From NCBI GenBank assembly GCA_963924555.1, contig OZ004583.1, forward strand, positions 7,826,582 through 7,890,581: 64,000 nt of DNA, in the 5' to 3' direction. Shown piece by piece: positions 1 to 54,631 of this stretch. Every line of letters starts with the position of its first letter. The first letter of the stretch is position 1. A program made the position numbers and the translations under genes. This DNA comes from Crambe crambe. Taxonomy: Eukaryota > Porifera > Demospongiae > Poecilosclerida > Crambeidae. A model generated the notes under the pieces. It was given only the letters and a program-made list of their open reading frames with translations, did not search any database and had not been told where the DNA came from.

Positions 1-8
1 TCTTCCAG

Positions 9-1798
9 ATTCAATCTCCATCTGAGAGATGTTCCTTTCACCAACTCCTAAACTACACAGTGGTCCTGGAGGACACCACAATGGAGAGTGTGGATCAGAG
101 GATGATCAACTCTGACAACTGCAGTGATGACCTCTGCTCCATATCCTTCATCCTCTCCTCACCAGACCAAAGATATTTTATCAGTGTTAATGTTGCAGGA
201 GGCTTTGGGTCAACTAGCACCTTTTTAAGTGAGTTGATTGGTTGCATGATAGCGCTCCTTTACCAAATTTTGATTTAGATACTACCATCCCATCTTCCTT
301 TAATGTTACTGCCTCCTCTGAGGGCTGTGTGACCTCTGTCCTCTGTTTCGGAGACTGCTTCTTCCAATATGGCCGTGACTCCTCTTACCAGGACCTGAGC
401 CCTTCATTGTCTACCTCCCTCAATTCCCCTCTCCAAATAACTGTCTCAGATGCTGCTACAATTCATTATTATCAGGTGACCATTAATACTTCTTCCCAGA
501 TAAGAGGAAACTTCACTTCAGGTGAAGGTGAGTTAGTATAACTATTTCACTAAGTCCACATAATGATTATGTTGGTGTGTGTAGGTACACGATTGACATC
601 TGCAAATCAAGGTCTGCTGGTTGTGGGTGTGATACTATTAAGTGTGGCCATTGTACTTGGAGTGATCATTACTGTGATGGTATTTAAGAAAGGTGTCTAT
701 CATTCACATAGGTTTTCATTTGTTCCAGTTGTTTTTTTGTTGTTGTTTTTTGTTTGTTTGTTGTTGTTTTTTTGTTTTTTTCCTCCTCTAGGACCATGGC
801 TATCTCTGGGTCTCTCTATGACAGGATTTGTTGTAGCATTGTTATCTCTTGTGTTGTGGGTGGCAGTGGGATTTCATGTTGGACTGCAAAAAAGTAAAAA
901 TTATTTTGCAAATTATTTATTAACTACTTTATGATTTTGTGTGCATGCAGATACATGTGATCCTACTTGGCATTCTTCTAGAGATGGTCTCATAATTTCA
1001 GCACATGTTTTCTCAGACATCAGTCTCCTAATATTTGTGGCTGCTGGAATATATTTTGCTGTGGATTACATCAGTAAGGCAATGAACGGGGCTGAAAGGA
1101 AGTAGCTAACCTGTTAAGTTCAGCAAAAGAATGATTAGGATAATCTCTTTTCTCTCTGTACTTGTACAGGTTTCCCCAACTACAAAAAGAGGAACAGTGA
1201 GGTAAGTGAGGATTGCATGTATATTTCATGCTAATCTGTATGCACCACAAATCCCACTCTCCTCTTATCTGTAGCTATATATATTACAGGAAGATGGGGC
1301 ATTAATAATGCACTATATGTATTATATTTACTGCAGCAAATGAGTTTCTGGCAGAAATGTTTGCACAGAAGTTTATCAAATAGTAATCAGCACCAACCAA
1401 GAGAGGAAGCCTGGGAAGTAAATTTATGGGCAAGTATTCTATTAGTTATGTCAGTAATATATTCCTGTGTTGTGACTATAATTATTCTAACAGAAAGGTC
1501 AAAAACTACAAGAGTTGGAGGTTGGCGCAGGAGGGAGAGTGAAGGAGTTGGAAGATCTTACTGTTGGAGAATTCAGAAAACCAGGACAATCACATATGAA
1601 ACAAACACTGGAGGCACAAGAAAGATATTATCAGGAATACAAGGATAAACTTCCAACTGGTGGAGTATGTAGAGTCATTTGTAGTGACAGTGTAGCTAGT
1701 CTCACTCTTTCATCATGTAGTCTAAAGGAGAGGAACCTGTCTACCTTTCACTGGACCATGGGAAGGGAGACAGAAGTGGATGTAAGGACAAACCATAG
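9..1798 (+). CDS. Receptor copy A, 5' end outside window
   Basis: This is the 3' part of an Ig/FN3 three-pass receptor gene. Visible exons are 9-228 (end of second FN3), 279-527 (juxtamembrane ectodomain), 585-692, 792-893 and 951-1073 (one membrane segment each), 1170-1201, 1337-1429, 1494-1664 and 1721-1798. All phases agree across junctions. The intron after 1429 has a GC donor and intron 1665-1720 is 56 bp. The tail exon keeps one YLSL motif, then stops at 1796-1798. Compared with copy D, a deletion just before the stop puts the usual C-terminal YSAL motif out of frame. Exons and introns up to about 1,070 are nearly identical to copy D. Family role is inferred as a cell-surface signalling receptor. 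Confidence 0.75.
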
Positions 1799-3577: not shown

Positions 3578-3578
3578 G

Positions 3579-10363: not shown

Positions 10364-11230
10364 ATGGTAAGTCCAGCTTTGCTTGAAGTATGGCTAAGGG
10401 GCTAGAGAATGTTGCAGTGCAATAATAGCTAGCTATTATTATCACACTGCAGTGCACTACATCAAGTAAATTCATTTGTTTCATTGGATTTATGCTAATC
10501 AGTGAAATCAAAAGTGAGTATAGCTAAGATCACTGATTATACTACACAGCTATAATAGGTGCCTGATCCTTAATATCATAGCATTGCCACAATTTTCTTT
10601 GACTCCTTCGAATGGAACTTTTTAGTTTTGGACGGGTTGAATTGGCACTGAATTAGCCAATGGTATGGAGAGTGAACAATAACAGATCGTACAATATTCC
10701 TATCAGCCATTAGTGGATGATATAGGGAGCCTGTGAGCCTCACCCCTTCGTGTACAAGTATGGATCAACAGAGATTCTGAAAACCAGAATGGTGGCGTTG
10801 ATATTATGTCCACATTGAGTGGCAATGCTTCTGTTCTGTCAGGATCAATGGTTCAGTGCATCCTCTGTATACAACTTCCAACAGCGTGTACAAGTCAGAA
10901 TCATCAGAGGCCTAGTTGTTCTCTTGTCTGCACTACTGGAGGTGCAGAGGTCTCCATCCAGTGGTCCCCCTCCTTCACCTCTCAGTATAATGTGGAGATG
11001 TATCATGTGGTAGTGAACCCCATGATCAGATGATACTGAGTCCCTGATAATCTCTAGCCATGTTTAGTTATAATTTGGCCTCTAGTTAGATCAATTTCAT
11101 ATAGCTAGAGACCAAGTGAGGGTTACAGCTGTGCCATCAACTCTATCAATGTTGACCCCACACTTTAGCTAGATAGCCAGAATAGCTACCTTGCAGAAAA
11201 CAATCCATATCTCTGGCTCTATGTTTGAGG
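10364..11230 (+). pseudogene. Receptor copy C, 5' fragment
   Basis: The start ATG (10,364-10,366) directly before GTAAGT and the signal-peptide exon (10,453-10,513) are preserved. The Ig exon from about 10,588 has deletions and lost its normal frame. The intron between Ig and FN3 exons is missing, so the two run together near 10,910. Only a degraded second FN3 exon follows, and no membrane or tail exons are found. It is the truncated relic of one family member. Confidence 0.75.
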
Positions 11231-11388: not shown

Positions 11389-14300
11389 ATGGTGAGTCCA
11401 GTTTTTTACATAATAGAAGAGCAGCCTAGCTATACTGCAGTGCAATAATACTCATTGCTATTTTTCTATCATACTGCAGTACACTGCACTCCTTTGTTTT
11501 GGATTTATGTTGATCAATGGAATCAAAGGTGAGTATAAGATCACTGAATATACTAATACACAGCTATACTTTGATCTTTATCATTATTTTATGATAGCAA
11601 TTCCACAAATTTCCTTGACTCCTTCAAATGGAACCTTTTGTCTTGGACGGGTTGAGTTCAATTGCACAGGCACTGAAGTAGCCAATAGCTTGATATGGAG
11701 AGTGAACGATACAATTCGTGCAACGTATACCTATCAGCCATTAGTGGATAATAGACCCTTCCCACATTCCGTGACCCTCACTTCTCCCATACCCAGTGTA
11801 CAAGTATGGGTCAACAGAGCTTCTGTAAACCAGGATGATAGTATTGACATCATGTCCACATTGAGTGGCAATGCTTCTGTTCTGTCAGGATCAATGGTTC
11901 AGTGCACCAGTGCTGGAAATACAACTTCCAACATCACACAAGTTAGAGCCATCAGAGGTTAGTAGTATGAAGTAATGCTTAAAATCATTCTTGCATAATA
12001 ATTTTTTGTATAATTATTGTTAATATAGCTCCTCCTTCCCCTTCTTTTGCTACCTGTTCTCTTGTCCACACTACTGGAGGTCCAGAGGTCTCCATCCGGT
12101 GGTCCCCCTCCTTCACCTCTATGAATAATGTGGAGATGTATCATGCGGTGGTGAACCCTGCCACCCCCTCCTGTCCCAGTGATCAGATGATAGTGAGTCC
12201 CTGATAATCTCTCACTAATTTATGTTTATAGTTATAACAGAGACCAAGTGAGGGTTACAGCTGCTCTGGACTGGTCCTGGGAACACGCTACTCTTTCAAT
12301 GTCAGTGCCATCAACTGTGGGAACCAACAAGGAGCTAAGAGTACCATCACAGTCCACCCACAAGGTATAGCTAACAATCTTAAATTCTCTATCAGATTGT
12401 GAGTGGTGTGAACAGTTTGTACATACCTTTTTAAAGGGAAATGCTTTATGACCAATGATAAATGTTTTATGCAGCTCCTTTAACTCCTGAGGTTACAGTT
12501 TCATCACTGTCTGATCAGAATGGACAACTAAATCTAACAGTGAAGTGGATGCAACAAGTTAGTTAGCTACTGTGGAGACTTTAATATTATCTACAGTAGT
12601 TTTCGTTTGTTTGCTTGTTTGTTTGTTTTTTGTCTTCCAGATTCAATCTCCATCTGAGAGATGTTCCTTTCACCAACTCCTAAACTACACAGTGGTCCTG
12701 GAGGACACCACAATGGAGAGTGTGGATCAGAGGATGATCAACTCTGACAACTGCAGTGATGACCTCTGCTCCATATCCTTCATCCTCTCCTCACCAGACC
12801 AAAGATATTTTATCAGTGTTAATGTTGCAGGAGGCTTTGGGTCAGCTAGCACCTTTTTAAGTGAGTTGATTGGTTGCATGATAGCGCTCCTTTACCAAAT
12901 TTTGATTTAGACACTACCATCCCATCTTCCTTTAATGTTACTGCCTCTTCTGAGGGCTGTGTGACCTCTGTCCTCTGTTTCGGAGACTGCTTCTTCCAAT
13001 ATGGCCGTGACTCCTCTTACCAGGACCTGAGCCCTTCATTGTCTACCTCCCTCAATTCCCCTCTCCAAATAACTGTCTCAGATGCTGCTACAATTCATTA
13101 TTATCAGGTGACCATTAATACTTCTTCCCAGATAAGAGGAAACTTCACTTCAGGTGAAGGTGAGTTAGTATAACTATTTCACTAAGTGCACATAATGATT
13201 ATGTTGGTGTGTGTAGGTACACGATTGACATCTGCAAATCAAGGTCTGCTGGTTGTGGGTGTGATACTATTAAGTGTGGCCATTGTACTTGGAGTGATCA
13301 TTACTGTGATGGTATTTAAGAAAGGTGTCTATCATTCACATAGGTTTTCATTTGTTCCAGTTGTTTTTTGTTGTTGTTGTTTTGTTTGTTTGTTTTTTGT
13401 TTTTTTTTGTTTGTTTTTTGTTGTTTTTTTCCTCCTCTAGGACCATGGCTATCTCTGGGTCTCTCTATGACAGGATTTGTTGTAGCATTGTTATCTCTTG
13501 TGTTGTGGGTGGCAGTGGGATTTCATGTTGGACTGCAAAAAAGTAAAAATTATTTTGCAAATTATTTATTGACTACTTTATGATTTTGTGTGCATGCAGA
13601 TACATGTGATCCTACTTGGCAGTCTTCTAGAGATGGTCTCATAATTTCAGCACATGTTTTCTCAGACATCAGTCTCCTAATATTTGTGGCTGCTGGAATA
13701 TATTTATATTTTGCTGTGGATTACATCAGTAAGGAATAAAACAATGAACTGGGCCTAAGGGAAGTATCTAGCTAAAGTTCTTGCTTCACAGCTGTTAAGT
13801 TCACCAAAAGAATGATTAGGATAATCTCTTTTCTCTCTATATACTTGTACAGGTTTCCCCAACTACAAAAAGAGGAGCAGTGAGGTAATTGAGGATTGCA
13901 TGCATTACACTTGTATATTTCATGCTAATCTGTATGCAGCACAAATCCCACTCTCCTCTTATCTGTAGCTATTACAGGAAGATGGCATCAATAATGCACT
14001 ATGTATTATATTGACTGCAGCAAATGAGTTTCTGGCAGAAATGTTTCTACAGAAGTTTATCAAATAGTATTCAGCACCAACCAAGAGAGAAGGACTGGGA
14101 AGTAAATTTGGCAAGTATTCTAGTAATCTTTTTAGTTATGTCAATTGATTATTCCTCTGTTGTGACTATATTCTAACAGAAAGATCAAAAACTAGAAGAG
14201 TTAGAGGTTGGTGCAGGAGGGAGAGTGAAGGAGTTGGAAGATTATAGTGTTGGAGAATTCAGAAAACCAGGACAACGATATTTTGAAGCTAAATTGGAGG

Positions 14301-14826
14301 CACAAGAAAGATATTATCAGGAATACAAGGATAAACTTCCAACTGATGGAGTATGTAGAGTCATTTGTAGTGACAGTGTAGCTAGTCCCACTCTTTCATC
14401 ATGTAGTCTAAAGGAGAAGAACCTGCCTCCAAGGGTAAGGGTGAGGACTCTCATTACCGTCTTCTAGACCATGGGAGTGGACTTGGACATAAGGACAAAC
14501 CAGCAAGAGAAAGTGGAGGAGGAGGAGAGGAATACAGTGCTCTCAATATTGGACAGGTAAGTGGCTGATGAGAGTAATAGATCACCATGGATATTGACCC
14601 AATGATAGTGTCATTTTTGTAGTAATTTAGCTATAGTAGTAATTTCATATCATCCATGCAGGAGAGTGGTAGGAAACCAGCAAAATCTTCACCTTCCCAA
14701 GCACGTAAAGAGGAGGGTGAGCACTACCTTCCACTGGACCATGGGAAGGGAGACAGAAGTGGACGTAAGAACAAGCCATCCAGTACCCAGAAGGGAAGTG
14801 GAGGAGAATACAGTGTTATTGTATAG
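11389..14826 (+). CDS. Receptor copy D: Ig-FN3-FN3, three membrane segments, YxxL tail
   Basis: Intact 16-exon gene, 2,199 coding bases, 732 aa. Exons: 11389-11391, 11480-11528 (signal peptide), 11598-11957 (Ig; Cys-Trp-Cys pattern), 12029-12192, 12241-12364, 12475-12557 and 12641-12860 (two FN3), 12911-13159 (Cys-containing juxtamembrane), 13217-13324, 13441-13542 and 13600-13728 (membrane segments), 13853-13884, 14021-14110, 14180-14350, 14407-14556 and 14662-14826 (cytoplasmic tail). The start codon stands alone before the first donor. The intron after 14,110 uses a GC donor. The tail has four YxxL/I motifs (HYRLL, EEYSAL, HYLPL, GEYSVI) about 30 residues apart. Three membrane passes put the tail in the cytoplasm. 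Ligand unknown. The function as a recognition receptor is inferred. Confidence 0.85.
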
Positions 14827-15473: not shown

Positions 15474-18400
15474 ATGGTGAGTCCATGTAGATAAGCTTGC
15501 ATATAGTTAGGACTAGCAATAATAATACTTATTGCATCACACTGTAGTACATTGCATCATATAAGCTCCTTTGTTTTGTTGGATTTATACTGATCAATGG
15601 AATCAAAAGTGAGTATAAGATCACTGGGTACATAATATTATATTTACTATAACTCAGTCATAGCATTGTCACAATTTTCCTTGACTCCTTCAAATGGAAC
15701 TTTTTGTCTTGGATGGGTTGAGTTCACTTGCACTGGCACTGAAGTAGCCAATCGCTTGATATAGAGAGTGAATAATACAGATTGCACACTATATACTTAT
15801 CGGCCATTAATTAATGATAGCTACCTTCCCACAATATGTGAACTTCAGCCCTCCCATACCTAGTGTACAAGTATGGGTCAACAGAGCTTCTGCAAACCAG
15901 AATAATATGTTTACTATTGACATCGTATCCATGTTGAGTGGCAATGCTTCTGTTCTGTCAGGATCGGTGGTTCAGTGTAGCTAGCTCTGAAGAAAATACA
16001 ACTGCCAACATCGTACAAGTTAGAGTCATCAGAGGTTATCTCAAAGTAGTTATTGTAATGCTTAAAATCATTCTTGCGTATTTTTGTATGTATAATTATT
16101 AATATAGCTCCTCCTTCACCTTCTTCTGCTATCTGTTCTCTTGTCCACACTACTGGAGGTCCAGAGGTCTCCATCCAGGGGTCCCCCTCCTTACACCTCT
16201 CAGTATAATGTGGAGATGTATCATGTGGTAGTGAACCCTGCCACCCCCTCCTGTTCCAGTGATTAGATGATAGTGAGTCCCTCACATACTGTACTTGGCT
16301 AGTGATACCACAGTTATAACTTTAGCAAGTTAGTAGTTATAATTTGGTGGATTTCGATTTCACAGGGACCAAATAAGAGTTACAGCTGCTCTGGACTGGT
16401 CCTGGGGACACACTACTCTTTCAATGTCAGTGCCATCAACTGTGAGAACCAAGAAGGGGCTGAGAGTACTATCATAGTCCACCCACAAGGTATGATCTTA
16501 AATTCATGCTACACTCTATCAAACTGTCAGTTGTGTGAACAATATAATTCAACTTAGATTTTGACCCTGCTAGCTACATGTATTTTTCTTCCCACTGATA
16601 ATGATGCAGAGAGGGAATGGCCGCTTCATGGCCAATGAGTGTCATTGTTTTATGCAGCTCCTCAAACTCCTGAGATTAGAGTTTTGTCACTGTATAATCA
16701 GAACAGACCACTGAATCAGCTGACAGTGCAGTGGATGCAACAAGTTACTGTGAAACCATTATGATGGCAGCTAATCACTTTTTTGTCTTCCAGAATCAAT
16801 CTCTGTCTGAGAGATGTTCCTTTAACCATCTCCTACGCTACACAGTGGTGGAGGACAGCACAAGGGAGAGGGTGGATCAGAGAATGATCAACTCTGACAA
16901 CTGCATTAATAACCTCTGCTCCATATCCTTCCCTCTCTCCTCACCAGACCAAAGGTATTCTGTCAGTGTTAATGTTGTAGGAGCCTTTGGATCAACTAAC
17001 ACCTCCACATCTTTAAGTGAGTTGAATTATAGCATATGTATATACAATAATACCTTTATCAATTTAGATGCTTTCATCTCATCTTCCTTTGACATTTCCT
17101 TCTCCTCTGAGGGTTGTGTGACTTCTGTCCTCTGATCCTTCCCTATGAGAGAAGGAGACTGCTTCTTCCAATGTGGCCATGACTCCTCTTACCAGGACCT
17201 GAGCCCTTCATTGTCTACCTCCCTCAATTCCCCTCTCCAAATAACTGTCTCAGATGCTGCTACAATCCAGGTGACCATCAACACTTCTTTCCAGGTCAGA
17301 GGAAACTTCACCTCAGGTGAAGGTGAGTTAGTACAACTATTCCTCTAAGTGCACATAATGATAATATGTTGGTGTGTGTAGGTGTACAATTGACATCTGC
17401 AAATCAAGGTCTGCTGGTTGTGGGTGTGATACTATTAAGTGTGGCCATTGTAGTAGGAGTGATCATTACTGTCATGGTATTTAAGAAAGGTGTCTATCTT
17501 TCACATAGCTAGCTAGGACTTTTTATTTCCTACTCTAGGACCATGGCTATCTCTGAGTCTCTCTATGACAGGATTTGTTGTAGCATTGGTATCTCTTGTG
17601 TTGTGGGTGGCAGTGGGATTTCATGTTGGACTACAAAAAAGTAAGAATTTTGCATATTATTGACTACTTTATGATTTTGTGTACATGCAGATACATGTGA
17701 TCCTACTTGGCAATCTTCTAGACATGGTCTCATAATTTCAGCACATGTTTTCTCAGATGTCAGTCTCCTAATATTTGTGACTGCTGGAATATATTTTGCT
17801 GTGGATTACATCAGTAAGGAATAAAACAATGAACAAAAGTTCTTGCTTCACACCTGTTAAGTTCAGCAAAAGAATGATTAGGATAATCTCTTTTCTCTCT
17901 ATATACTTGTACAGGTTTCCCCAACTATAAAAAGAGGAGCAGTGAGGTAATTGAGGATTGCATGCATTATAGCTACTTGTATATTTCATGCTAATCCGTA
18001 TGCAGCACAAATCCCACTCTCCTCTTATCTGTAGCTATTACAGGAAGATGGCATCAATAATGCACTATGTATTATATTGACTGTAGCAAATGAGTTTCTG
18101 GCAGAAATGTTTGCATAGAAGTTTATCAAATAGTATTCAGCACCAACCAAGACAGAAGGACTGGGAAGTAAATAAGCCGGCAAGTATTCTACTAATCTTT
18201 TTAGTTATGTCAATTGATTATTCCTCTGTTATGACTATATTCTAACAGAAAGATAAAAAACTAGAAGAGTTGGAGCGTGGTGCAGGAGGGAGAGTGAAGG
18301 AGTTGGAAGATCTTACTGCTGTAGGATTCAGAAAACCAGGACAATCATATATGGAAGCTAAACTGGAGGCACAAGAAATACTGTTCAGAAATACAAAGAT

Positions 18401-18620
18401 GAACTTCCAACTGATGGAGTATGTAGAGTCATTTGTAGTGACAGTGTAACTAGTCCCACTCTTTCATCATGTAGTCTAAAGGAGAGGAACCTGCCTCCAA
18501 GGATAAGGGTGAGGACTCTCATTACCATCCACTAGACCATGGGAAAGGAGGCAGTGGATATGACAAACCAGCAAGAGGAGGAGGAGAGGAATACATTGCT
18601 CTCAATAGTAAACGAGTAAG
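15474..18620 (+). pseudogene. Receptor copy E, nearly complete but broken
   Basis: All exon types of the family are present from ATG 15,474 and signal exon 15,548-15,608 through three membrane exons to the first YxxL tail exon. Coding is disrupted. In the Ig exon (from 15,664) the conserved Trp codon is TAG at 15,762-15,764, with further shifts near 15,980. The first FN3 exon has an inserted base near 16,190. In the juxtamembrane exon a Cys codon is TGA at 17,133-17,135. The tail exon near 18,380 also lost bases. Splice sites mostly survive, so it may still be transcribed. Its 3' end and downstream flank are shared with copy H. Confidence 0.8.
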
Positions 18621-24589: not shown

Positions 24590-26996
24590 ATGGTGAGTCC
24601 AATTTTGCTTGAAGTATAGTTACTGGCTATAGTGCAATAATAGCTATCTATTATTATCACACTGCAGTGCACTGCATCAAGTAAATTCATTTATTTCATT
24701 GGATTTATGCTAATCAGTGGAATTAAAAGTGAGTATAAGATCACTGATTATGCTACACAGCTATAAAATAGCTACCTGCATGATCTTTATATCATAGCAT
24801 TGCCACAATTTTCCTTGACTCCTTCGAATGGAACTTTTTGTCTTGGACGGGTTGAGTTAACTTGCACAGGCACTGAAGTAGCCAATGGTTTGATATGGAG
24901 AGTGAACAATACAGATCGCACAATATATTCATATCAGCCATTAGTGGATGATAGGGACTTCCCACAGCCTGTGAATATTGACCCTTCCATACCTAGTGTA
25001 CAAGTATGGATCAACAGCGCTTCAGAAAACCAGAATGGTGGCATTGATATTGTGTCCACATTGAGTGGCAATGCTTCTGTTCTGTCAGGATCAATGGTTC
25101 AGTGTATCAATCCTCTAAACACAACTTCCAACAATATACAAGTCAGAGTCATCAGAGGTAACTTATCTCATAGCAATAATTATTATTATGAAGTAGCTAA
25201 TGCTTATAATTATTTATTCATAATTATTATAGCCCCTCCTTTATTCTCCCCTATCTGTTCTCTTGTCCGTACTACTGGAGGTCCAGAAGTCTCCATCCAG
25301 TGGTCCCCCTCCTTCACCTCTCAGTATAATGTGGAGATGTACCATGTGGTAATGAACCCTGCCATCCCCTCCTGTCCCAGTGATCAAATGATAGTGAGTT
25401 ATCTCTCACTAGTTGGTTTCAAACCACATTTAAGTACAATACCTGTAGGTACGTAGCTAGCTATAGTTTGATTTTCATTTCACAGAGACTGAGTAAGGAT
25501 TCATACAGGTGCTCTGGACTGATCCTGGGGACACGCTACTCCTTCAATATCAGTGCCATCAATTGTGGGAACCAAGAAGGGGCTGAGAGTACTATCACAG
25601 TCCACCCACAAGGTAGTAGCTATATATAGCTAACAATACTAGAGCATTGGTGTGAATGAATACTGATCCCAAGTCTAGCTATGCATGTAGCTACATGATG
25701 GGAGCAGTATTTTTCTTTCCACCATGATGCAGATGGAAAGTCTGCATGGCCAATGAGACTTGTATGTTTTACAGCTCCACAAACTCCCAAGGTAAAAGTT
25801 TTGCCTTTGTATTATCAGAATGGACGACTGAATCTGACAGTGCAGTGGATGCAACAAGTTAGCTACGTACTATGAAACTATTACTTTAATGGCAGCTAAT
25901 CACTTTTTTGTCCTCCAGAATCAATCTCTATCTGAGAGATGTTCTTTTAACCAGCTCCTAAGCTATACAGTTGTCCTGGAGGACAGCACAAGGGAGAGGG
26001 TGGATCAGAGAAAGATTAGTTCTGACAACTGCAGTGATAACCTCTGCTCCATATCCTTCCCCCTCTCCTCACCAGACCAAAGATATTTCGTCAGCATTAA
26101 TGCTACAGGAGCCTTTGGATCAACTAGAACCTCCACATCTCTAAGTGAGTCAATTCATTACATAATAATGTTCCTTTACTAATTTTTGATCAAGATGCCT
26201 CTATCCCATCTTCATTTGATGTTTCCTTCTCCTCTGAGGATTGTGTGACCTCTGTCCTCTGTTCCTACCTTATGAGAGAAGGAGATTGTTTCTTCCAATA
26301 TGGCCGTGATTCCTCTTACCAGGACCTGAGCCCTTCATTGTCTACCTCCCTAAATTCCCCTCTCCAAATAACTGTCTCAGATGCTGCTACAATTCATTAT
26401 TATCAGGTGACCATCAACACTTCTTCCCTCATCCTTCAGGTCAGAGGAAACTTCACTTCTGGTGAAGGTGAATTATTTTCGAAGTAATTATAATAATTAT
26501 AATGTTGGTATGCATAGGTGCACGGTTGATATCTGTTAATCAAGATCTGCTAGTTGCGGGAGTGGTAATATTAATTGTGGCCATTGTATTTGGAGTACCC
26601 ATCTATTGTTGTATGGTAATTAAAGAAGGTAAAGCTAATTATTCCCATAGCTAACTATTAATTAAGTCATCAGTTTATGTTGTTTTCTTTTCTAGGACCA
26701 CGTTTTTTTGTGTGTCCCTCTATGATAGGATTTATAATTATAGCAGTTGCATCTGTTGTGCTGTGGGTGGTAGTGGGAGTTAAAGTTGGACAGCAAAAAA
26801 GTAAGCATTATAAATTCTCTCAGATTACTAATATTGTGTACATGCAGATACATGTGATCCTACTTGGCAGTCTAAGAGAAATGGTCTCATAGCTTCAGCC
26901 CATTATTGCTCAGATCTCAGCCTTATGTGGCTATTAGCTACCTCTACATGTGTGTGTATAATCATTAAATTTTGTCGTCACTTAAAATATTATTAA
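24590..26996 (+). CDS. Receptor copy F: same ectodomain, short tail without YxxL
   Basis: Intact 11-exon gene, 1,659 coding bases, 552 aa. Exons: 24590-24592, 24668-24728 (signal peptide), 24798-25157 (Ig), 25233-25393, 25486-25612, 25775-25857 and 25919-26144 (two FN3), 26195-26467 (juxtamembrane), 26518-26628, 26696-26800 and 26848-26996 (three membrane segments). The last exon reads through the usual donor position and ends after a short basic tail (KFCRHLKYY). All phases fit. Unlike D, H and K there are no downstream tail exons and no YxxL motif. The membrane exons are clearly diverged from the long-tail group and match pseudogene J. It may act as a decoy or adaptor-dependent partner; that is inference. 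Confidence 0.82.
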
Positions 26997-27236
26997 ATGT
27001 TAACCTTAGCTAGCTGAAGTTCTTGAATACTAGCTATCTGTAGTTCAAAATATAATATGGATTTCCCTGCCCTATTTTGACAGCATTGAAAACTCGGTAT
27101 ACTGCGTGCTGTTTATCTTTGTATACTAGAATTTGTATATACTAGAACATAATGACCAAGAGAGATGAGATGACCTAATTAGTTAGAACAATGATACTGT
27201 GCACTACTTATTGCCTTATTTATCACACTGCATGTA
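26997..27236. other. Short intergenic gap
   Basis: AT-rich sequence between copy F and the remains of copy G. No feature recognised. Confidence 0.4.
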
Positions 27237-29555: not shown

Positions 29556-32500
29556 ATGGTGAGTCCAGAAGAGCAGGTGAAGGGGCTAGCAATACTGCAG
29601 TGCAATTTATTGCCATTTTCTATCACACTGCAGTACACTGCATTCTTTTGTTTTGGATTTATGTTGATCAATGGAATCAAAGGTGAGTATAAGATCACTA
29701 GCTAGATATACTAATATACAGCTATACTTTGATCTTTATCATAGCAATTCCACAAATTTCCTTGACTCCTTCAAATGGAACTTTTTGTCTTGGACGGGTT
29801 GAGTTCACTTGCAATGGCACTGAAGTGGCCAATCGCTTGATATGGAGAGTGAACGATACATATCGCACAGTATATACATATCAGGTGGATAATAGGAACT
29901 TCCCACATTCTGTGACCCTCATCTCTCCCATACCTAGTGTACAAGTATGGGTCAACAGAGCTTCTGTAAACCAGGATAATATGCTTACTATTGACATCAT
30001 GTCCACGTTGAGTGGCAATGCTTCTGTTCTGTCAGGATCGGTGGTCCAGTGTAGCTTCGAAGAAAATACAACTGCCAACATCATACAAGTTAGAGCCATC
30101 AGAGGTTATCTCAAAGTAGTATAATATTTAATGCTTAATATCATTCTTAATATAATTATAATAATTATTAACATAGCTCCTACTTCCCCTTCTTCTGCTA
30201 CCTGTTCTCTTGTCCGCACTACTGAAGGTCCAGAGGTCTCCATCCAGTGGTCCCCCTCCTTCACCTCTCAGAATAATGTAGAGACGTATCATGTAGTAGT
30301 GAACCCTGCCACCCCCTCCTGTCCCAGTGATCAGATGATAGTGAGTCCCTGATAATCTCTCACTAGTTATACTTATGTTTATAGTTATATCTGGCCTATA
30401 CATAGGTGTAGGAACCAGGGGGGCAGGGGGCTACAACCCCCTAACCATATACTTCCAGACATGAAATGTAATAACTTGTTAATTTCCCAAGAATGCATGA
30501 TTAATAAGCAATTTATCAGGACAGATGAACTGAACCTAAAAATTTGTTTCTGTAAATTCTAGATGTTTACAATAATAGGATTTAATCAGGGTAGAAACTT
30601 CTCCCAACTTTCCCTCATCACATGCACAAACCAATGTTTATAATAATATATTATTGGTGATTATAAACTCACTCAGATTGCACCAGATGCAATCTAAGGC
30701 AAGGGGAATTAAAAGTCAAAAATTTCCTTGCCCCCCAACCCCTTTAGATGGCGCACTTTGTGAGGTATGTAGCCTATAGCTAGCTACTGCCCCCCTAACC
30801 AAAATTATCTTCCTACGCCTATGCTATAGTTAGATGCATGGATTTCAATTTCATAGAGACCAAGTGAATGTTATAGCTGCTCTGGACTGCTCCTGGGGAC
30901 ACACTACTCTTTCAATGTCAGTGCCATCAACTGTGGGAATCAAGAAGGGGCTGAGAGTACTATCATAGTCCACCCACAAGGTATAACAATTTTAAATTCT
31001 CTATCAGACTGTGAGTGGTGTGAACAGTTTGTACATACCTTTTTAAAGAATTTTTGGAAATGCTTCATGACCAATGTCTTATGCAGCTCCTTTAACTCCT
31101 GAGGTTACAGTTTCATCACTCTATGATCAGAATGGACTACTGAATCTGACAGTGAAGTGGATGCAACAAGTTAGCTAGCTACTGTGAAGACTTTAACAAA
31201 AGTGTTTGTTTGTAATTTTGTCCTCCAGATTCAATCTCCATCTGAGAATTGTTCCTTTCACCAACTCCTAAGCTACACAGTGGTCCTGGAGGACAGCACA
31301 AGGGAGAGGGTGGATCAGAGGATGATCAACTCTGACAACTGCAATGATAACAACTGCTCCATATCCTTCATCCTCTCCTCACCAGACCAAAGATATTTTG
31401 TCAGTGTTAATGTTACAGGAGACTTTGCGTCAACTAGCACCTCTCTAAGTGAGTTGATAGGTTGCGTGATAGTACTCCTTTACCAAATTTTGATTTAGAC
31501 ACTACCATCCCATCTTCCTTTAATGTTACTGCCTCTGAGGGCTGTGTGACCTCTGTCCTCTGTTCCGGAGACTGCTTCTTCCAGTATGGCCGTGACTCCT
31601 CTTACCAGGACCTGAGCCCTTCATTGTCTACCTCCCTCAATTCCCCTCTCCAAATAACTGTCTCAGATGCTGCCACAATTCATTATTATCAGGTGACCAT
31701 CAACACTTCTTCCCAGATCAGAGGAAACTTCACTTCAGGTGAAGGTGAGTTAGTATAAATATTTCTCTAAGTGCACATAATGATATCATGTTGGTGTGTG
31801 TAGGTGCACAGTTGACATCTGCAAATCAAGGTCTGCTGGTTGTGGGTGTGATACTATTGAGTGTGGCCATTGTACTTGGAGTGATCATTACTGTGATGGT
31901 ATTTAAGAAAGGTGTCTATCATTCACATAGGTTTTCATTTGTTCCAGTTTTGTTGTTGTTGTTGTTGTTATTGTTTTCTCCTCTAGGACCATGGCTATCT
32001 CTGAGTCTCTCCATGATAGGATTAGTTGTTACATTTGTATCTCTTGTGTTGTGGGTGGCAGTGGGATTTCATGTTGGACTACAAAAAAGTAAAATTTTTG
32101 CTAATATTATTATTGACTACTTTATAATTTTATACATGCAGATACATGTGATCCTACTTGGCAGTCTTCTAGAGATGGTCTCATAATTTCAGCACATGTT
32201 TTCTCAGACATCAGTCTCCTAATATTTGTGGCTGCTGGAATATATTTTGCTGTGGATTACATCAGTAAGGAATAAAACAATGAACTGGGCCTAAAGGAAG
32301 TAGCTAAAGTTACCTGTTAAGTTCGAATGATTAGGATAATCTCTTTTCTCTCTCTACTTGTACAGGTTTCCCCAACTACAAAAAAAGGAGCAGTGAGGTA
32401 AGTGAGGATTGCATGCATTATAGTTATATTTCATGCTAATCTGTATGCACCACAAATCCCACTCTCCTCTTATCTGTAGCTATTACAGGAAGATGGCATT

Positions 32501-33056
32501 AATAATGCATTATGTATTATATTGACTGCAGCAAATGAGTTTCTGTCAGAAATGTTTGCATAGAAGTTTATCAAAAAGTAATCAGTACCAACCAAGAGAG
32601 GAAGATAAGCCGGCAAGTATTGTTTTAGTTATGTCAGTAATATATTCCTCTGTTGTGACTATAATTATTCTAACAGAAAGGTAAAAAACTAGAAGAGTTG
32701 AAGGTTGGTACAGGAGGGAGAGTGAAGGAGTTGGAAGATATTAATCAGGAATTCAGAACACCAGGACAATCATATATGGAAGCTAAACTGGAGGCACAAG
32801 AAAGATTGTATCAGGAATACAAGGATAAACTTCCAACTGATGGAGTATGTAGAGTCATTTGTAGTGACAGTGTAGCTAGTCCCACTCTTTCATCATGTAG
32901 TCTAAAGGAGAGGAACCTGCCTCCAAGGGTAAGGGTGAGGACTCTCATTACCATCCCCTAGACCATGGGAAAGGAGGCAGTGGATATGACAAACCAGCAA
33001 GAGGAGGAGGAGAGGAATACATTGCTCTCAATAGTAAACGAGTAAGTGGCAACTAG
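29556..33056 (+). CDS. Receptor copy H: Ig-FN3-FN3, three membrane segments, two YxxL motifs
   Basis: Intact 15-exon gene, 2,019 coding bases, 672 aa. Exons: 29556-29558, 29634-29682, 29745-30104 (Ig), 30177-30340, 30857-30980, 31087-31169 and 31229-31448 (FN3 pair), 31499-31744, 31804-31911, 31987-32088 and 32142-32264 (membrane), 32366-32397, 32532-32612, 32677-32844 and 32901-33056. A MITE lengthens the fourth intron. The intron after 32,612 has a GC donor. The final exon has HYHPL and EEYIAL, then reads through the position of the usual next donor to a stop at 33,054. The upstream promoter block is split by a transposon, so expression may be altered. Confidence 0.85.
30401..30823. mobile_element. 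MITE in intron 4 of copy H
   Basis: Terminal inverted repeats CATAGGTGTAGGA and TCCTACGCCTATG, with CTATA on both flanks (30,396-30,400 and 30,824-30,828). The corresponding introns of copies D and K lack it. Confidence 0.7.
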
Positions 33057-44318: not shown

Positions 44319-45943
44319 TTAACCAAGATCATCATTGTCCTCATGTTGACTGAGACAGCAAACTGTAAGTTTTTTGCATTCATTAGCTGCATACAAAAGG
44401 CACCTTACAGCTAGTAGCTATAGTTATAGCTACTTGTGTCATGCCCAGCCCAAAGATCAAAGAAGCCGCTCGACCTTTAAATCGCATAAAGTTCGAGTAT
44501 GCTACAACCCACCCACGCACTGTGCTTTGCTGCGCACCCTCGGGCCTCGAGCTTTAAACTGGATACATCCCTCACACTCGGGATATAACTATTACATACG
44601 CGTCTGGTTAACTACTGAAAGAGTACACTTATCTAATGTAGGGTGCATATATTTTCCTGACTAAGTAGCTCCTACTCTGATTACTTAAAATAGTCAATAG
44701 GCTTCATAAAAAATGGTTTTGCATATAGTAATCACTACAGCTAGATTCTATCAATAACTGCTATAGAGTTAAGGCCAGTGTTCAAAGTACACTATCTGGA
44801 GAGCCCATGCACTTGAGCCATGGACTTGCATGCAGCTTTTATGACATCTTTTGATTAGCTTCTGCCATCTGGTAGCTAGCTCTCTTAGCTTCCAACCTGC
44901 ATATCAAAATTCACTATTAACCCCTCCCTCCCTCACTCTCTCCCTCTACTGGTCCACCCTCCCTTTCTCCCTTATAGGTGTTCCGGTGTTTTTCTTATCT
45001 GCTCCTTCTAATGGAACTTTCTGTCCTGAAAGAGTCACATTCACTTGTTGTGGCATTGAAGTACCTAGTCTGACTTGGGCAATTAATGACAGTGATCTAG
45101 CATCATTCTCAGACTATGATCCTACACAACGTTTACCACTGACCCTGACCCTTATTAATCCAAGCCATCTTACATCTGGTGTGCAAGTGCTGGTTAACAA
45201 TGTTAATCCTGATGAAAACAATCTTTCTTACAATGTATCTTCCACATTGAGTGGTGATGCATCTCTTCTAAAGGGGTCAAAGATTGACTGTAGACGTCTT
45301 CCATTTACTAGCAGTGCAATATATATCAGAGATATCAGAGGTAGGCATACATGAGCATGATGAGCTCTATTTAGGTAGTATGTATGTATGTATGTGTCAT
45401 ACAATTTATCAATAGACCCTCCTCCTTCCCCTTCTTCTGCTACCTGTTCTCTCATCAAAACTGCTAGAGGTCCAGAGGTCTTCATCCAATGGTCTCCCTC
45501 CTTCGCCTCTCAGTATGATGTGGAGATATATCATGTGGTAGTGAACTCTACCAGCCCCTCCTGTCCCAGTGATCAGATGATAGTGAGTCCCTGGTAATCT
45601 GTGTTAGTAAAGTTATACCTATGGCAAGTATAGCTATAGTTAGACATAGTGGATTTCCAATTACACAGAGCCCTAATGAAGATTACAGCTGCTCTGGACT
45701 GGTCCTGGGGACATACTACTCTTTCAATATCAGTGCCATCAATTGTGTGAACCAATCAGGGGCTATCAGTACTATCACAGTCCACCCACAAGGTACGTAA
45801 ATGTGTATAGTTGCTGATGCTTATTGCACATAACCTAGTATTATTATAAGTGTTATTTTCCAGTTCCACTGATTCCTGAAATTGTACTAATTCCTAAGTA
45901 TAATGAAGGAAATTCGCTAAACCAGCTTACAGTAACTTGGCAA
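44319..45943 (+). CDS. Receptor copy I, diverged member, exons 2-6 only
   Basis: Five consecutive open exons have the family's phases: 44319-44364 (hydrophobic signal, IIIVLM), 44978-45340 (Ig; the first Cys, Trp and last Cys kept, but much of the sequence differs from all other copies), 45416-45582, 45669-45792 and 45864-45943 (first FN3 and start of second). The one-base ATG exon was not found. No exon 7 follows before a 447-bp hairpin MITE. If the next intron is retained, translation would run through a short hydrophobic stretch (MVIIAIIF) to TGA near 46,035. It is either a truncated or secreted protein, or the front half of a gene whose back half is pseudogene J. Confidence 0.6.
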
Positions 45944-45997
45944 GTAATGGTAATTATAGCAATCATTTTTAAGTATATACCATCACCTCTATTTTCA

Positions 45998-48268: not shown

Positions 48269-48312
<44 letters not shown>

Positions 48313-48560: not shown

Positions 48561-48949
48561 GAACAAAAGAACGAAAAGTCAATTTTAGAACTCGTTTTTT
48601 TCTTATGTTGGCGAATGAATTTTTGGCTTTTGAACATTCTCCTCTCTTCTTTGTAGATATAATAATTCACTGTAGCCTTCTGAGAACCTGTAGAGTAAGG
48701 GTAGAAGAGAAAGAAAGTCCAGTGTGCCTGTGCGTGAGATCGCCATGCCCACTTTATCTTTCATCTACTTAGCTATCAGAAGGAGTCCAAAGGCTCCTGT
48801 GGCACAGGACCACTCCAGTTGGTCCGGTTTTCACCAGACCACTTTTATCATCCCATGCTTGCAGAGTTTGCTTAGTGCATGATTGTGTATAATTATGAAG
48901 ACCATGACCTTAAAGAATCATGATCACACTAGCTTAGCTTTATTGAAAT

Positions 48950-49640
48950 CAACTGGCACTTCCACGTCTCTAAGTGAGTTGATTCATTCCTTTGATCAAG
49001 ATGCCTCTTCATTTGAGGGCTGTGTGACCTATGTCCTCTGTTCCTACACTATATGAGAAGAAGAGTGCTTCTTCCAATATGGCTGTGACTCCTCTTACCA
49101 GGACCTGAGCCCTTCATTGTCTACCTCCCTCAATTCCCTCTCCGAATAACTGTCTCAGATGCTGCTACAATTCATTATTATCAGGTGACCATCAACACGT
49201 CTTCCCTTAACCTTCAAACTTCACTTCTGATGAAAGTGAATGAAATAATTATTTATGATATAATGTTGGTGTATGTACATGCACGGTTGATATCTGTTAA
49301 TCAAGGTCTGCTGGTTGTGGGTGTGATAGTATATACCCATTCATTGTACAGTGGTAATTTATAAAGAAGGTACAGCAAAATTATTTTTCTCTAGGACCAC
49401 GTTTTTGTGTGTCCCTCTATGACAGGATTTATATTTATAGCAGTTGCATCTGTTATGCTGTGGGTGGATAGTGGGAGTTAAAGTTGGAAAGCAACAAAGT
49501 AATTCTTAAATTGATAATAATTTTGTGTACATGCAGATACACGTGATCTTACTTGGCAGTCTAAGAGAAATAGTCTCATAGCTTCAGCCCATTATTGCTC
49601 AGATCTCAGCCTTGTGGCTAGCTACCTCTACATGTGTATA
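48950..49640 (+). pseudogene. Receptor copy J, 3' fragment of the short-tail type
   Basis: Carries the end of an FN3 exon (to about 48,972), a juxtamembrane exon with frameshifts (from about 48,993), the first membrane exon with a deletion, the second (about 49,396-49,495, extra base) and the third (from about 49,538). The third has the TCTAAGAGAAA sequence diagnostic of copy F rather than the long-tail copies. Broken in several places. Confidence 0.75.
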
Positions 49641-49807
49641 TAGCTACGTATAGTAATTCATCTTCACTGACACATTCAGATGTTAACTTTAATTGCTAGC
49701 TAGCTTGCTGCATATATGCGGTGTGCTCCCGTATAGCTAAAGTTCTCGAATTCTCTAATAGTTATAGCTACTACCAGAAGACCACAAACAACACCGCTCC
49801 CAGACAT

Positions 49808-49885: not shown

Positions 49886-52800
49886 ATGGTGAGTCCAGCT
49901 TAGATTAGCCTATATAGTTTGCTAGAACAATGCTGCAGTGCACTACTTATTGCCTTTTCTATCACACTGCATGTAAGCTCCTTTGTTTGGTTGGATTTAT
50001 GCTGATCAACGGAATTAAAGGTGAGCACAAGATTACTGGATATACTAATGCATAGCAATGCTAAAACTCTGTCATAGCATTGCCACAATTTTCCTTGACT
50101 CCTTCAAATGGAACTTTTTGCCTTGGATGGGCTGAGTTCACTTGTACAGGCACTGAAGTAGCCAATGGTTTGATATGGAGAGTGAATAATACAGATCACA
50201 CACTATATGCATTTCGGCCATTCGTTAATAATACCTTCCCACAATCTGTGAACGTTGACCCTCCCATACCCAGTGTACAAGCATGGGTCAACAGAGCTTC
50301 TGCAAATCAGGATGATAGTATTGACATTGTATCCACATTGAGTGGCAATGCTTCTGTTCTGTCAGGATCAATGGTTCAGTGCATTAGTGCTGGAAGTACA
50401 ACTTCCAACAGCGTACGAGTTAAAGTCATCAGAGGTAACTTATCTCATAATAGTACTTTGTAATCATTAATATTATTATATCATAGCTCCTCCTTTATTC
50501 TCCCCTACCTGTTCTCTTGTCCATACCACTGGAGGTCTAGAGGTCTCCATCCAGTGGTCCCCCTCCTTCACCTCTCAGTATAACGTGGAGATGTATCATG
50601 TGGTAGTGAACCCTGCCCCATCCTGTCACAGCGATCATATGATAGTGAGTCCCTGACTATACTTGGCTAGTGATGCCACGTTTAGTTATAAATTTGTTAT
50701 AGTTTGATGGATTTCAATTTCTTAGAGACCAAGTGAGGGTTACAGCTGCTCTGGACTGGTCCTGGGGACACACTACTCATTCAATGTTAGAGCAATCAAC
50801 TGTGGGAATCAAACAGGGGCTGAGAGTACTATCACAGTCCAACCACAAGGTATAACAATGTAGCTAGCTACATGCATGATGTTTGTACCCAGGAGCAGTA
50901 TTTTTCTTCCCACTGATAATGATGCAGAGGGAAAGGCTTATGGTAGCCAGGGTTTCATCTAGGAATTTCACCTTGGGGGGGAAGCTCATCGATCGTGTGG
51001 CTGTAGGTCACAGCAAGGGGGAGGGTGCGGGAGGGGGGGGTGCCCCCTCCCGTGTAAAGCGCGACGCCAAAAATGCTTACTACTCCAAATTGGTCCTTAA
51101 TTACTCCCTTTGGTGACTACATGTGACGACCTGTGGTCACAAAAGGGAGTAGCCATGGGGGAAGTTAATTAGTTTGGGGGGGGGGGGGAAAGCTTCCCCC
51201 CTGCACCCCCAGTAGATGAAACCCTGGTAGCACGAGTATAAATATTTTATGCAGCTCCTCAAACTCCCGAGGTTACAGTTTCACAAGAGTATGATCAAAA
51301 TGGACGACTGAATCAGCTGACAGTGCAGTGGATGCAACAAGTTAACTCTATTACTGTGGCTAACAGCAGCTAGTCACTTTTTATGTCCTCCAGATTCAAT
51401 CTCCATCTGAGAGGTGTTCCTTTAACCAACTCCTAAACTACACAGTGGTCCTGGAGAACAGCACAAGGGAGAGAGTGGATCAGAGGGTTATCAACTCTAA
51501 CAACTGCAGTGATGACCTCTGCTCCATTTCCTTCCCCCTCTCCTCACCAGAGCAAGGCTATTTTGTCAGCATTAATATTGCAGGAGCCTTTGGATCAACT
51601 AGCACCTCCACTTCTCTAAGTGAGTTGAATTCTATAATATTAGTTAATAGCTATAAAATACTTTATAACTTTCGAGTTAGACACTTCCATCCCATCTTCC
51701 TTTGATGTTTCCTTCTCCTCTGAGGGCTGTGTGACCTCTGTCCTCTGCTCCTACCCTATGAGAGAAGGAGAGTGCTTCTTCCAATATGGCCGCGACTCCT
51801 CTTACCAGGACCTGAACACTTCATCAACCTCCCTCAATTCCCCTCTCCAAATAACTGTCTCAGATGCTGCTACAATCCATTATTATCAGGTGACCATCAA
51901 CAGTTCTTCCCTTAACTTTCGGGTCAGAGGAAACTTCACTTCCGGTGAAGGTGAATTAGGTAGTATGTTTCTTGGAGTACAATAACATGAATGTTGGTGT
52001 GTAGGTGCACGGTTGACATCTGCAAATCAAGGTCTGCTGATTGTGGGTGTGATTCTATTAAATGTGGCCATTGTACTTGGAGTGATCATTACTGTGATGG
52101 TATTTAAGAAAGGTATGTATATATCATTCACATAGCTTTTCGTTTTCCAGTTTTTTTCTTTCTCCTCTAGGACCATGGCTATCTCTGAGTCTCTCCGTGA
52201 CAGGATTTGTTGTGATATTTGTATCTCTTGTGTTGTGGGTGGCAGTGGGATTTCATGTTGGACTGCAAGAAAGTAAGCATTCGCTCAGGTTACTCCTTTG
52301 TAATTTTTGTACATGCAGATACATGTGATCCTACTTGGCTGTCTTCTAGAGATGGTCTCATAATTTCAGCACATGTTTTCTCAGACATCAGTCTCCTAAT
52401 ATTAGTGGCTGCTGGAATATATTTTGCCATGGATTACATCAGTAAGGAATATGTACTGTGTGCTAGGGAAATTATTCTCTTTGACTCTTGGTGCTTCACA
52501 CCAACAAATAACTAAGTCATCTTTCTCTCTATACTTTTACAGCTTTACCCAACTACAAAAAGAGGACCAATGAGGTAACTATGCATTGTACAGGAAGATG
52601 GCATTAATGCTATAATGTATATTATTGACTATAGCAAATGAATTTCTGGCAGAAATGTTTGCACAGAAGTTTATCATATAGTATTCAGCACCAATTAAGA
52701 GGGAAGGATTGGGAAGTAAATATACCGGCAAGTATTTTTATAAATCTTTTAGTTATGTCAATTAATTATTCCTCTGTTGTAACTATTCAGAAGGATAAAA

Positions 52801-54631
52801 AAATAGAAGAGTTGGAGGTTGGTGCAGGAGGGAGAGTGAAGGAGTTGGAAGATCTTACTGTTGGAGAATTCAGAAAACCAGGACAATCATATATGGATGC
52901 TAAACTGGAGACACAGTTAAGATATCATCAGGAATACAAGGATAAACTTCCAACTGATGGAGTATGTAGAGTCATTTATAGTGACAGTGTAGCTAGTCCC
53001 ACTCTTTCATCATGTAGTCTAAAGGAGAGGAACCTGCCTCCAAGGGTAAGAGTGAAGACTCTCATTACCATCCCCTAGACCATGGGAAAGGAGGCAGTAG
53101 ACATGGACATAAGGACAAACCAGCAAGAGAAAGAGGAGGAGGAGAGGAATACAGTGCTCTCAATAGTGGCAAAGTAAGTGATGCACAGGATGTGGAAATC
53201 ACCATGAGGAATAACATACACACTCATAGATATATGATATATATATATATATATGTACTCCAGGCAAGTGGTGGACCTTCACCTTCCCAAGTACATCACA
53301 ATAAGGAGAAGGATCAACACTACCTCCCACTGGACCACAAGAAGGGAGGTAAAGTGGCTGGAAGTAAGGATAAGCCATCCAGTACCCAAGGTGGAAGTGG
53401 GGAAGAATACAGTGCTCTGGGTAACAGAAAGGTATATAAGGCCGATATGGTAATGCCATCGTAATTTCATATCATCCATGCAGGAGAGTGGTAGGAAACC
53501 AGCAAAACCTTCAGCTTGTAAAGAGGGTGAGGACTACCTTCCACTGGACCATGGGAAGGGAGACAGAAGTGGATGTAAGGACAAGCCATCCAGTACCAAG
53601 AATCAGGTATAGCATAATATCAGTTACTGATAATTGTATCTAAACCCGTTATTAGGAAGATGGTAATAATTGCAGAAAATGAGTTCCTGGCAAAAATTTC
53701 TACATAGAAGCTCATCAAAGAGTATTAAGCACCAACCAAAAGAGGAAGGCTGGAAAGTAAATAAGCGGGTAAGTAACTTGATTAGCTATTCCTCTGATCT
53801 GTTATGACTATAATAATTAATCTAACAGAAAGATAAAAAACTAGAAGAGTTGGAGTTTGGTCCAGGAGGGAGAGTGAAGGAGTTAGAACACTATGATGCA
53901 AATGAATTCAGAAAACCAGGACAATCATATATGGATGCTAAACTGGCAGCACAAGAAAGACTGTATCAGGAATACAAGGATGAATTTCCAACTGATGGAG
54001 TATGTAGAGTCATTTGTAGTGACAGTGTAGCTAGTCCCACTCTTTCATCATGATAGTCTAAAGGAAAGGAACCTGCCTCCAAGGGTGAGGACTCACATTG
54101 CCGTCCCCTAGACCATGGGAAAGGAGGCAGTAGACATGGACATAAGGACAAACCAGCGAGGGAAAGTGGAGGAGGAGGAGAGGAGTACAGTGCTCTCAAT
54201 AGTGGACAAGTAAGTGGATGATGATAAATCACCATTGATTATTACTCCTGGACCCTCACCTTCCCAAATACATAAGAAAGATCAACATTACCGCCCACTG
54301 GACCACAAGAAGGGAGGTAAAGGGGCTGGAAGTAAGGACATGACCCAGGGTGGAAATGGGGAGGAATACAGTGCTCTGGGTAACAGTAAGGTAAAGAAAA
54401 ACCCAACCAATGATAATGTCATTGTACATCATGTCATCCATGCAGGAGAGTGGTAGGAAACCACCAAAACCTTCACCTTCCCAAGCACATAAAGAGGAGG
54501 GTGAGCACTACCTTCCACTGAACCATGGGAAGGGAGACAGAAGTGGACGTAAGGACAAGCCATCCAGTACACAGAAGAGAAGTGAAGAAGAATACAGTGC
54601 TCTGAGTAACAGTCCTAACAAATACATGTAG
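49886..54631 (+). CDS. Receptor copy K: longest member, tail cassette duplicated, eight YxxL motifs
   Basis: 21 exons, 2,985 coding bases, 994 aa (a second ATG lies just upstream at 49,883). Exons: 49886-49888, 49939-50020, 50078-50434 (Ig), 50487-50644, 50726-50849, 51255-51340 and 51394-51619 (FN3 pair), 51681-51950, 52005-52112, 52171-52272 and 52319-52441 (membrane), 52543-52574, then tail exons 52635-52727, 52791-52961, 53018-53173, 53264-53431, 53484-53606, 53676-53768, 53829-53999, 54057-54209 and 54446-54631. The second tail set repeats the first. All tail exons are phase 0, so gain or loss keeps frame. Motifs include HYHPL, HYLPL, DYLPL and repeated EEYSAL, and one HYRPL position is Cys. 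An intact, likely signalling receptor; the signalling role is inferred. Confidence 0.85.
50947..51227. mobile_element. MITE in intron 5 of copy K with TAG target duplication
   Basis: Ends CCAGGGTTTCATCTA and TAGATGAAACCCTGG are inverted repeats. TAG flanks both sides. Copy B at about 8,277 preserves the empty site (TATGGTAGCATGAG), proving insertion after duplication. Confidence 0.9.
54250..54390 (+). pseudogene. Relic tail exon of copy K lacking an acceptor
   Basis: Encodes the usual HYRPL...EEYSAL module and keeps its donor (AAG/GTAAAG), but the acceptor CAG present at 53,261-53,263 in the sister exon is deleted. It is probably skipped, which stays in frame. Confidence 0.65.

What the first reader, a model, noticed from the sequence alone, without database searches (positions are those of the whole stretch)
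1..54631. Tandem Ig/FN3 three-pass receptor array with YxxL tails: candidate sponge recognition system
Eleven copies in one orientation: four intact, one cut by the window edge, one diverged partial and five broken. The intact ones rebuild exactly in frame (732, 552, 672 and 994 aa). Signal peptide, one Ig, two FN3, three membrane segments and a modular tyrosine-motif tail is a combination I do not know from a named family. Tandem duplication, pseudogenes and shared blocks resemble invertebrate allorecognition loci such as Hydractinia alr. The function is inference.
Basis: partly seen in the sequence, partly recalled or inferred. Interest (0 to 1): 0.92.

Follow-up and report, generated by a model that had tools for sequence, protein, structure and literature searches.

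The report
Sponge variable three-pass receptor complex
A sponge chromosome carries a block of dozens of related cell-surface receptor genes whose outermost part differs strongly between copies while the membrane part and a tail of repeated tyrosine motifs stay alike, a layout that suggests a self/non-self or microbe recognition system and gives a concrete candidate to test.

Summary
In detail: eleven same-strand copies, four intact, one cut by the edge, one diverged partial, five broken. My exon chains give 672 and 552 aa as claimed, 729 (claimed 732) and 1,024 (claimed 994). The window is the right end of a 0.87 Mb complex on one chromosome with 64 juxtamembrane-bearing places in both orientations; its tail cassettes match nowhere else at E 0.001. 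The distal Ig exon falls into at least four classes (mean 42% identity between classes) on a more uniform FN3, juxtamembrane and three-TM backbone (69-82%). Tails repeat YxxL motifs, mostly 23-30 residues apart: no canonical ITAM (0 of 9), an ITIM-like SHYxxL in 7 of 9. Most likely this is a germline-diversified recognition receptor family. Allorecognition is possible, not shown: dN/dS is below 1 in every module, and polymorphism within the species is hardly tested (nine of ten exons in other deposited contigs fit copies here, one does not).

The parts
6..1795 (+). copy A, right part (second FN3 through tail), 5' exons in L028 outside the window
   Evidence: 9 exons, no stop; L028
2811..9718 (+). 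copy B, pseudogene split by a Ty3/gypsy element
   Evidence: 4 stops, 10 frameshifts; element by Pfam
10447..11135 (+). copy C', broken SP-Ig-FN3 fragment
   Evidence: 3 stops, 4 frameshifts
11389..14826 (+). copy C, intact, 729 aa, two tail cassettes
15527..18615 (+). copy D, nearly full length, 4 stops and 4 frameshifts
24590..26996 (+). copy F, intact, 552 aa, ends after TM3 without the tyrosine tail
   Evidence: no tail exon seen between 27.0 and 29.5 kb
27191..27819 (+). copy G, broken SP-Ig-FN3 fragment
   Evidence: 3 frameshifts
29556..33056 (+). copy E, intact, 672 aa, one tail cassette; one tail intron needs an unusual splice
44978..45949 (+). copy H, diverged partial: class 2 Ig on a class-1-like first FN3
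48949..49652 (+). copy J, broken juxtamembrane and TM1-3, TM variant like that of F by eye
49886..54631 (+). copy K, intact, 1,024 aa, six tail cassettes
50078..50434 (+). K: Ig exon (distal, most variable module)
50487..50849 (+). K: first FN3, two exons
   Evidence: Pfam PF00041 E 5.7e-6
51255..51619 (+). K: second FN3-like domain, two exons
   Evidence: exon pattern; only a weak sub-threshold Pfam match to IFNGR1_D2
51681..51950 (+). K: conserved Cys-containing juxtamembrane exon
52005..52441 (+). K: three transmembrane exons
   Evidence: Amastin-like match
52543..54631 (+). K: cytoplasmic tail exons with ten YxxL motifs

Best explanation
This is the end of a large single-chromosome complex of germline-diversified cell-surface recognition receptors in the sponge Crambe crambe. 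Shown by sequence: hydrophobic N-terminus, variable distal Ig-like exon, FN3 stalk, a conserved juxtamembrane domain, three hydrophobic segments, and in most examined full copies a tail of repeated tyrosine cassettes; many copies in both orientations; at least four Ig classes on a shared backbone. Inferred: the Ig tip binds varied ligands (partner cells or microbes); the three-pass anchor places the N-terminus outside and the tail inside; clustering leads to phosphorylation of the YxxL tyrosines and recruitment of SH2 proteins, giving graded activating or inhibitory output; tail-less copies such as F act as decoys or non-signalling partners.
For: Complex: 135 of 135 matches of K on C5 (57 of 648 candidates scored); 131 of 131 tail matches at C5:7,004,918-7,881,185 (111 of 111 scored); 64 distinct juxtamembrane places of at least 69% identity among the printed rows, 34 + and 30 - (150 of 185 scored, list cut). 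Variable tip, more uniform body: mean identity between Ig classes 0.42 for Ig against 0.69 (FN1), 0.75 (FN2), 0.82 (JM), 0.82 (TM); dS 0.78 in Ig against 0.18 in JM, which suggests different histories of the exons. H carries a class 2 Ig (0.74 to B48) on a first FN3 nearer class 1 (0.73-0.76) than B48 (0.48). Tails: K has 10 YxxL motifs (maximum of 500 shuffles 6), C and B14 have 5 (maximum 4); 27 of 32 gaps between motifs are 23-30 residues.
Against: dN/dS is below 1 in every module, so no positive selection is shown. Six of nine tails do not exceed their shuffles. No canonical ITAM in 9 tails. Polymorphism in the species rests on one exon and flank genes. No expression, ligand or phosphorylation data. 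Tandem FN3 arrays are common in this genome, so clustering is not specific to recognition. Structure models were too poor to confirm the Ig (pLDDT 55) or the juxtamembrane domain (37).
Confidence: 0.57

Rival explanations
1. Allorecognition proper: the complex determines whether sponge tissues fuse or reject, the Ig tips binding alleles of themselves or a linked ligand, YxxL tails setting activation against inhibition.
For: Size and make-up parallel the Botryllus fuhc locus (Ig plus three-pass fester, FcoR with ITIM, hemITAM or YxxI/L/V; PMC12065747); sponges reject allografts predictably, which points to a polymorphic system (PMC5450542 introduction).
Against: No graft or genetic data; no positive selection on Ig shown; exon variation between deposited contigs is nearly nil where it could be checked, one of ten.
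Confidence: 0.2
2. Innate immune receptors for microbes or symbionts: diversity is driven by pathogens, not by conspecific alleles.
For: Birth-and-death pattern with pseudogenes, Ig-class diversity, a ZU5 exon and a Death-like exon between copies D and F.
Against: No induction data; the ZU5/Death gene may be an unrelated neighbour.
Confidence: 0.3
3. Adhesion or ECM receptors whose YxxL motifs are AP-2 endocytic signals; the expansion is neutral duplication.
For: YxxL also fits the Y-x-x-bulky sorting signal (recalled); tandem FN3 arrays are common here; purifying selection.
Against: Up to ten regularly spaced motifs in two recurring contexts, HYxPL and EYSAL-like, exceed what sorting needs (inference); old Ig classes on a more uniform body are unlike plain copying.
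Confidence: 0.2

Closest known systems
Botryllus schlosseri fester family (FF) and fester co-receptors (FcoR) in the fuhc locus
   Same: Ig tip, three TM segments (fester); YxxI/L/V core motifs and ITIM in FcoR tails; many loci in an ~800 kb polymorphic locus
   Different: Here one chain carries both the three-pass anchor and the tyrosine tail; FN3 instead of Sushi; sponge; homology not tested
[quoted passage not shown] review PMC11999971, passages read)
   Same: Clustered IgSF family in an allorecognition complex
   Different: Alr is single-pass without this FN3 stalk and three-pass anchor (topology recalled)
Amastin/claudin-like tetraspan proteins
   Same: Juxtamembrane-plus-TM part matches PF07344 in 7 of 8 members at E 1 or better, best 5e-7; 0 of 9 controls
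   Different: Only the last three segments are present; of three whole proteins one is above the curated cut-off; 3 of 7 reversed controls weakly match Claudin_2
Sponge aggregation factor
   Same: Sponge cell-recognition candidate (named in PMC5450542 section 3.3)
   Different: Calx-beta proteins (recalled); Calx-beta matches lie on other contigs, none on C5 among the rows listed (150 of 1021 candidates scored)

Membership tests
Botryllus fester family | extracellular Ig plus Sushi, three TM, short tail | tested here: not met
   Three hydrophobic segments met and Ig likely; FN3 by Pfam and no Sushi among Pfam matches of 3 proteins, long tail in most full copies
Botryllus fester family | sequence homology to fester | not tested
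   No fester sequence was held or typed
FcoR | single TM with ITIM, hemITAM or core YxxI/L/V tail | tested here: not met
   Core motif in 9 of 9 tails, ITIM-like in 7 of 9; but three hydrophobic segments, not one
Hydractinia Alr | V-set/I-set Ig ectodomain, single TM (TM number recalled) | tested here: not met
   FN3 stalk and three hydrophobic segments; Ig set not classifiable
ITAM receptors | [DE]xxYxx[LI] x6-8 Yxx[LI] | tested here: not met
   0 of 9 tails
Ig superfamily | Cys-Trp-Cys core of an Ig sandwich | tested here: inconclusive
   Cys26, Trp37 and Cys105 invariant in 9 of 9; Pfam Ig_3 in 1 of 9 at E 0.12; best PDB match E 0.32, a Fab light chain; AF2 pLDDT 55, no Foldseek match at E 0.001
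FN3 | Pfam fn3 above cut-off | tested here: met
   First FN3 in 3 of 3 proteins, 25.6-28.4 bits against 25; second FN3 not met
Allorecognition locus | fusion outcome segregates with the locus | not testable with these tools
   needs crosses or grafts
Allorecognition locus | high allelic polymorphism | tested here: inconclusive
   Of ten exon proteins from other contigs, five are exact apart from a start Met in four, four are consistent with exact once start Met and query joins are discounted, one is 84% at best

The most novel reading that the evidence does not exclude
Chromosome 3 at 7.0-7.9 Mb is the histocompatibility complex of Crambe crambe, the first sponge one seen at gene level. It would have evolved independently towards the plan of Botryllus fester/FcoR, but with recognition tip, three-pass anchor and a tunable tail of tyrosine cassettes in one chain, diversified by swapping old Ig exon classes onto a backbone kept alike by gene conversion.
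Probability: 0.18. Interest if true: 0.92.

Novelty: new variant of a known kind. Interest (0 to 1): 0.68.

Why it matters
Sponge grafting has been studied since 1869 (PMC5450542, introduction), but I know of no receptor locus shown to decide the outcome (recalled; the listings showed none by title or start of abstract). This complex is one mappable block of about 0.9 Mb in an assembled chromosome, so segregation of graft outcome, phasing of haplotypes and phosphotyrosine assays can be done directly. If it works as proposed, three distant animal lineages reached a similar plan: clustered Ig receptors with tyrosine-motif output.

Tried and rejected
Structure: AlphaFold2 of the Ig exon of copy E alone (sent without an alignment by oversight; pLDDT 55, no Foldseek match at E 0.001) and of the juxtamembrane exon with five window sequences (pLDDT 37): uninformative.

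Homologues: the 792-aa K protein found none, but the length rule of that search shuts out exon-sized predictions, so this says little. An exon-sized query found ten, all probably of this species.

Polymorphism: I first read identities of 96-99% as variants. Recounting showed that the mismatches equal the start Met and the joins of my strung-together query, so P0122, P0125, P0127 and P0129 are consistent with exact copies.

Positive selection: by module none; individual pairs with dN above dS occur, most in TM2 (14 of 55) and TM1 (11 of 66). In 15-codon windows, class 1 none above 1; class 2 (five sequences) four above 1 (46-60, 91-105, 151-165, 241-255), small and unreliable.

Silicatein: the TCN-codon pattern gave 0, the AGY pattern 7. 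An 18S search did not complete.

Rejected: canonical ITAM receptor (0 of 9); assembly artefact (conserved introns and classes); an array carried by the retroelement (it sits in one copy of the window).

Full report
1. Observation. The window holds eleven copies of one gene on the + strand. E needs one unusual splice in the tail, and one late K exon starts further in than its sister. The first exon ends in ATG directly followed by a GT[GA]AGT donor in 6 of 8 aligned 5' ends; B and G lack it. Of 15 introns of K (to residue 792) tested over up to 25 copies that cover them, most recur at the same residue and phase (for example 22 of 22, 20 of 20, 16 of 18; lowest 5 of 9, in the tail). The aligner prefers good splice sites, so this is support, not proof, of splicing.

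2. Where it is. The genome has 143,139,886 bases in 119 contigs. The paper counts 124 scaffolds, not 119. Silicatein-type codons occur 7 times, all at C15:865-885 kb, control 0; the other serine codon gave 0. So the host is very probably C. crambe (Demospongiae, Poecilosclerida) and the window lies on chromosome 3.

3. Extent. K matches only C5 (135 of 135, from 57 scored of 648 candidates). Juxtamembrane exons with at least 69% identity occupy 64 distinct places among the printed rows, 34 on + and 30 on -, 8 of them in the window (150 of 185 candidates scored, list cut), between 7.007 and 7.879 Mb. Tail cassettes: 131 of 131 matches between 7.005 and 7.881 Mb. Ig exons: 95 matches, 92 on C5 and 3 on C9 at 32-37%; some C5 ones (31-40%) lie outside the complex (113 of 129 scored). 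More distant juxtamembrane relatives (about 35-49%) flank the complex at 6.64-6.98 and 8.09-8.15 Mb, lie inside it at 7.41-7.46 Mb, and one listed is on C9. I read the complex as a tail-bearing branch of a wider Ig-FN3 superfamily.

4. Anatomy. First FN3: over Pfam's cut-off in 3 of 3 proteins. Ig: Cys26, Trp37 and Cys105 invariant in 9 of 9 diverse exons, but no significant profile match. Three hydrophobic segments show in 9 of 10 proteins, after a conserved Cys-containing juxtamembrane exon. That part matches Amastin (PF07344) in 7 of 8 members, best E 5e-7; 0 of 9 controls did (seven reversed, two block-shuffled; the reversed F member was left out), though 3 of 7 reversed ones matched Claudin_2 at E 0.025-0.59. 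I take this as a hint that the anchor resembles the last three segments of a claudin-like fold. The tail has one to six cassettes with two recurring motifs, HYxPL and EYSAL-like; nine tails carry 2 to 10 YxxL/I/V, no ITAM, and SHYxxL (ITIM-like; SHYxPL in six, SHYRLL in one) in 7. Only K, C and B14 exceed all 500 shuffles. F and J end after TM3, with a TM variant alike by eye; only F is intact.

5. Evolution. Mean Ig identity is 0.59 over 78 pairs (minimum 0.30); JM 0.85 over 66 pairs (13 of 28 aligned copies, chosen for Ig coverage without stops). dS is 0.78 in Ig and 0.18 in JM, so the difference is not only selection: backbone exons look homogenised or recently spread while Ig classes are old. 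Between Ig classes the body stays at 0.69-0.82 (37 pairs, 33 for TM, 21 for the region after TM3). Average dN/dS is below 1 in every module; class 1 Ig windows reach 0.84, class 2 windows exceed 1 in places on few sequences. Positive selection is not shown.

6. Variation in the species. An exon-sized search returned 10 proteins from ENA contigs of 2.57, 1.37 and 0.32 Mb. P0123 is identical to DNA held here, and P0124, P0126, P0128 and P0130 differ only in the start Met, intron-derived ends included. P0122, P0125, P0127 and P0129 show 4, 2, 2 and 1 mismatches, the number expected from the start Met and the joins of my query, so they are consistent with exact copies. P0121 reaches 84% in the DNA held, and no row aligns with its whole segment (100 of 164 candidates scored). 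A flank protein, P0001, on a contig of the same 2.57 Mb length is at best 81% identical to a place in this genome (142 of 609 candidates scored); P0002 is 80% to the window, not searched genome-wide. The paper says contigs of a second haplotype were deposited; that these are they is a guess. So variation is hinted at the flank and in one exon, no more. Gene finders catch few exons, so missing copies mean nothing.

7. Function. Best reading: variable tip, fixed anchor, tyrosine output. Shown are sequence, structure of the genes and diversity between copies; ligand, phosphorylation and role are inferred. Allorecognition, microbe sensing and adhesion with endocytic signals remain open, with my odds in the rival list.

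8. Known systems. The Botryllus review (PMC12065747; passages and section 11 read) describes fester: Ig, Sushi, three TM, short tail; FcoRs: tails with ITIM, hemITAM or YxxI/L/V; locus about 800 kb. On its anatomy the sponge family works like the two fused. It is not a member: FN3 replaces Sushi, and homology was not tested. Papers seen: PMC12065747 (passages, one section), PMC5450542 (abstract, introduction, section 3.3), PMC12166358 (abstract, passages), PMC11999971 (passages); others only in search listings, which showed no paper on this family by title or start of abstract.

Noticed in passing
window 3537-7592 +: A Ty3/gypsy-type element with gag, protease, RT, RNase H and integrase domains in one open frame lies inside broken copy B; it is GC-richer (about 50%) than its surroundings.
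   Followed up: partly
window 20751-23797 +: Exons with a ZU5 domain (PF00791, E 5e-7) and a Death-like domain (E 0.0016, below cut-off) lie between copies D and F: a possible ZU5-Death gene inside the complex.
   Followed up: no
window 57852-64000 -: Three tandem copies (one intact, 306 aa) of a secreted Cys-rich family with no significant Pfam match; 3,035 database relatives at E 1e-5 and large arrays on C6, C3, C17 of this genome.
   Followed up: partly
C5 7.22/7.30, 7.55/7.65, 7.59/7.67, 7.61/7.69 Mb: Pairs of matches with equal or nearly equal scores 77-92 kb apart suggest block duplications of about 80-90 kb inside the complex.
   Followed up: no
C9 2.34-3.53 Mb; L008: An FN3-rich array of over 1 Mb; L008 also has an Ig-like stretch and one that looks like the region before a receptor tyrosine phosphatase domain (recalled, not tested).
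   Followed up: partly
C10 5.69-6.58 Mb, C3 5.6-5.8 Mb: Dense Calx-beta arrays, candidates for sponge aggregation factor genes, on other chromosomes than the receptor complex.
   Followed up: no
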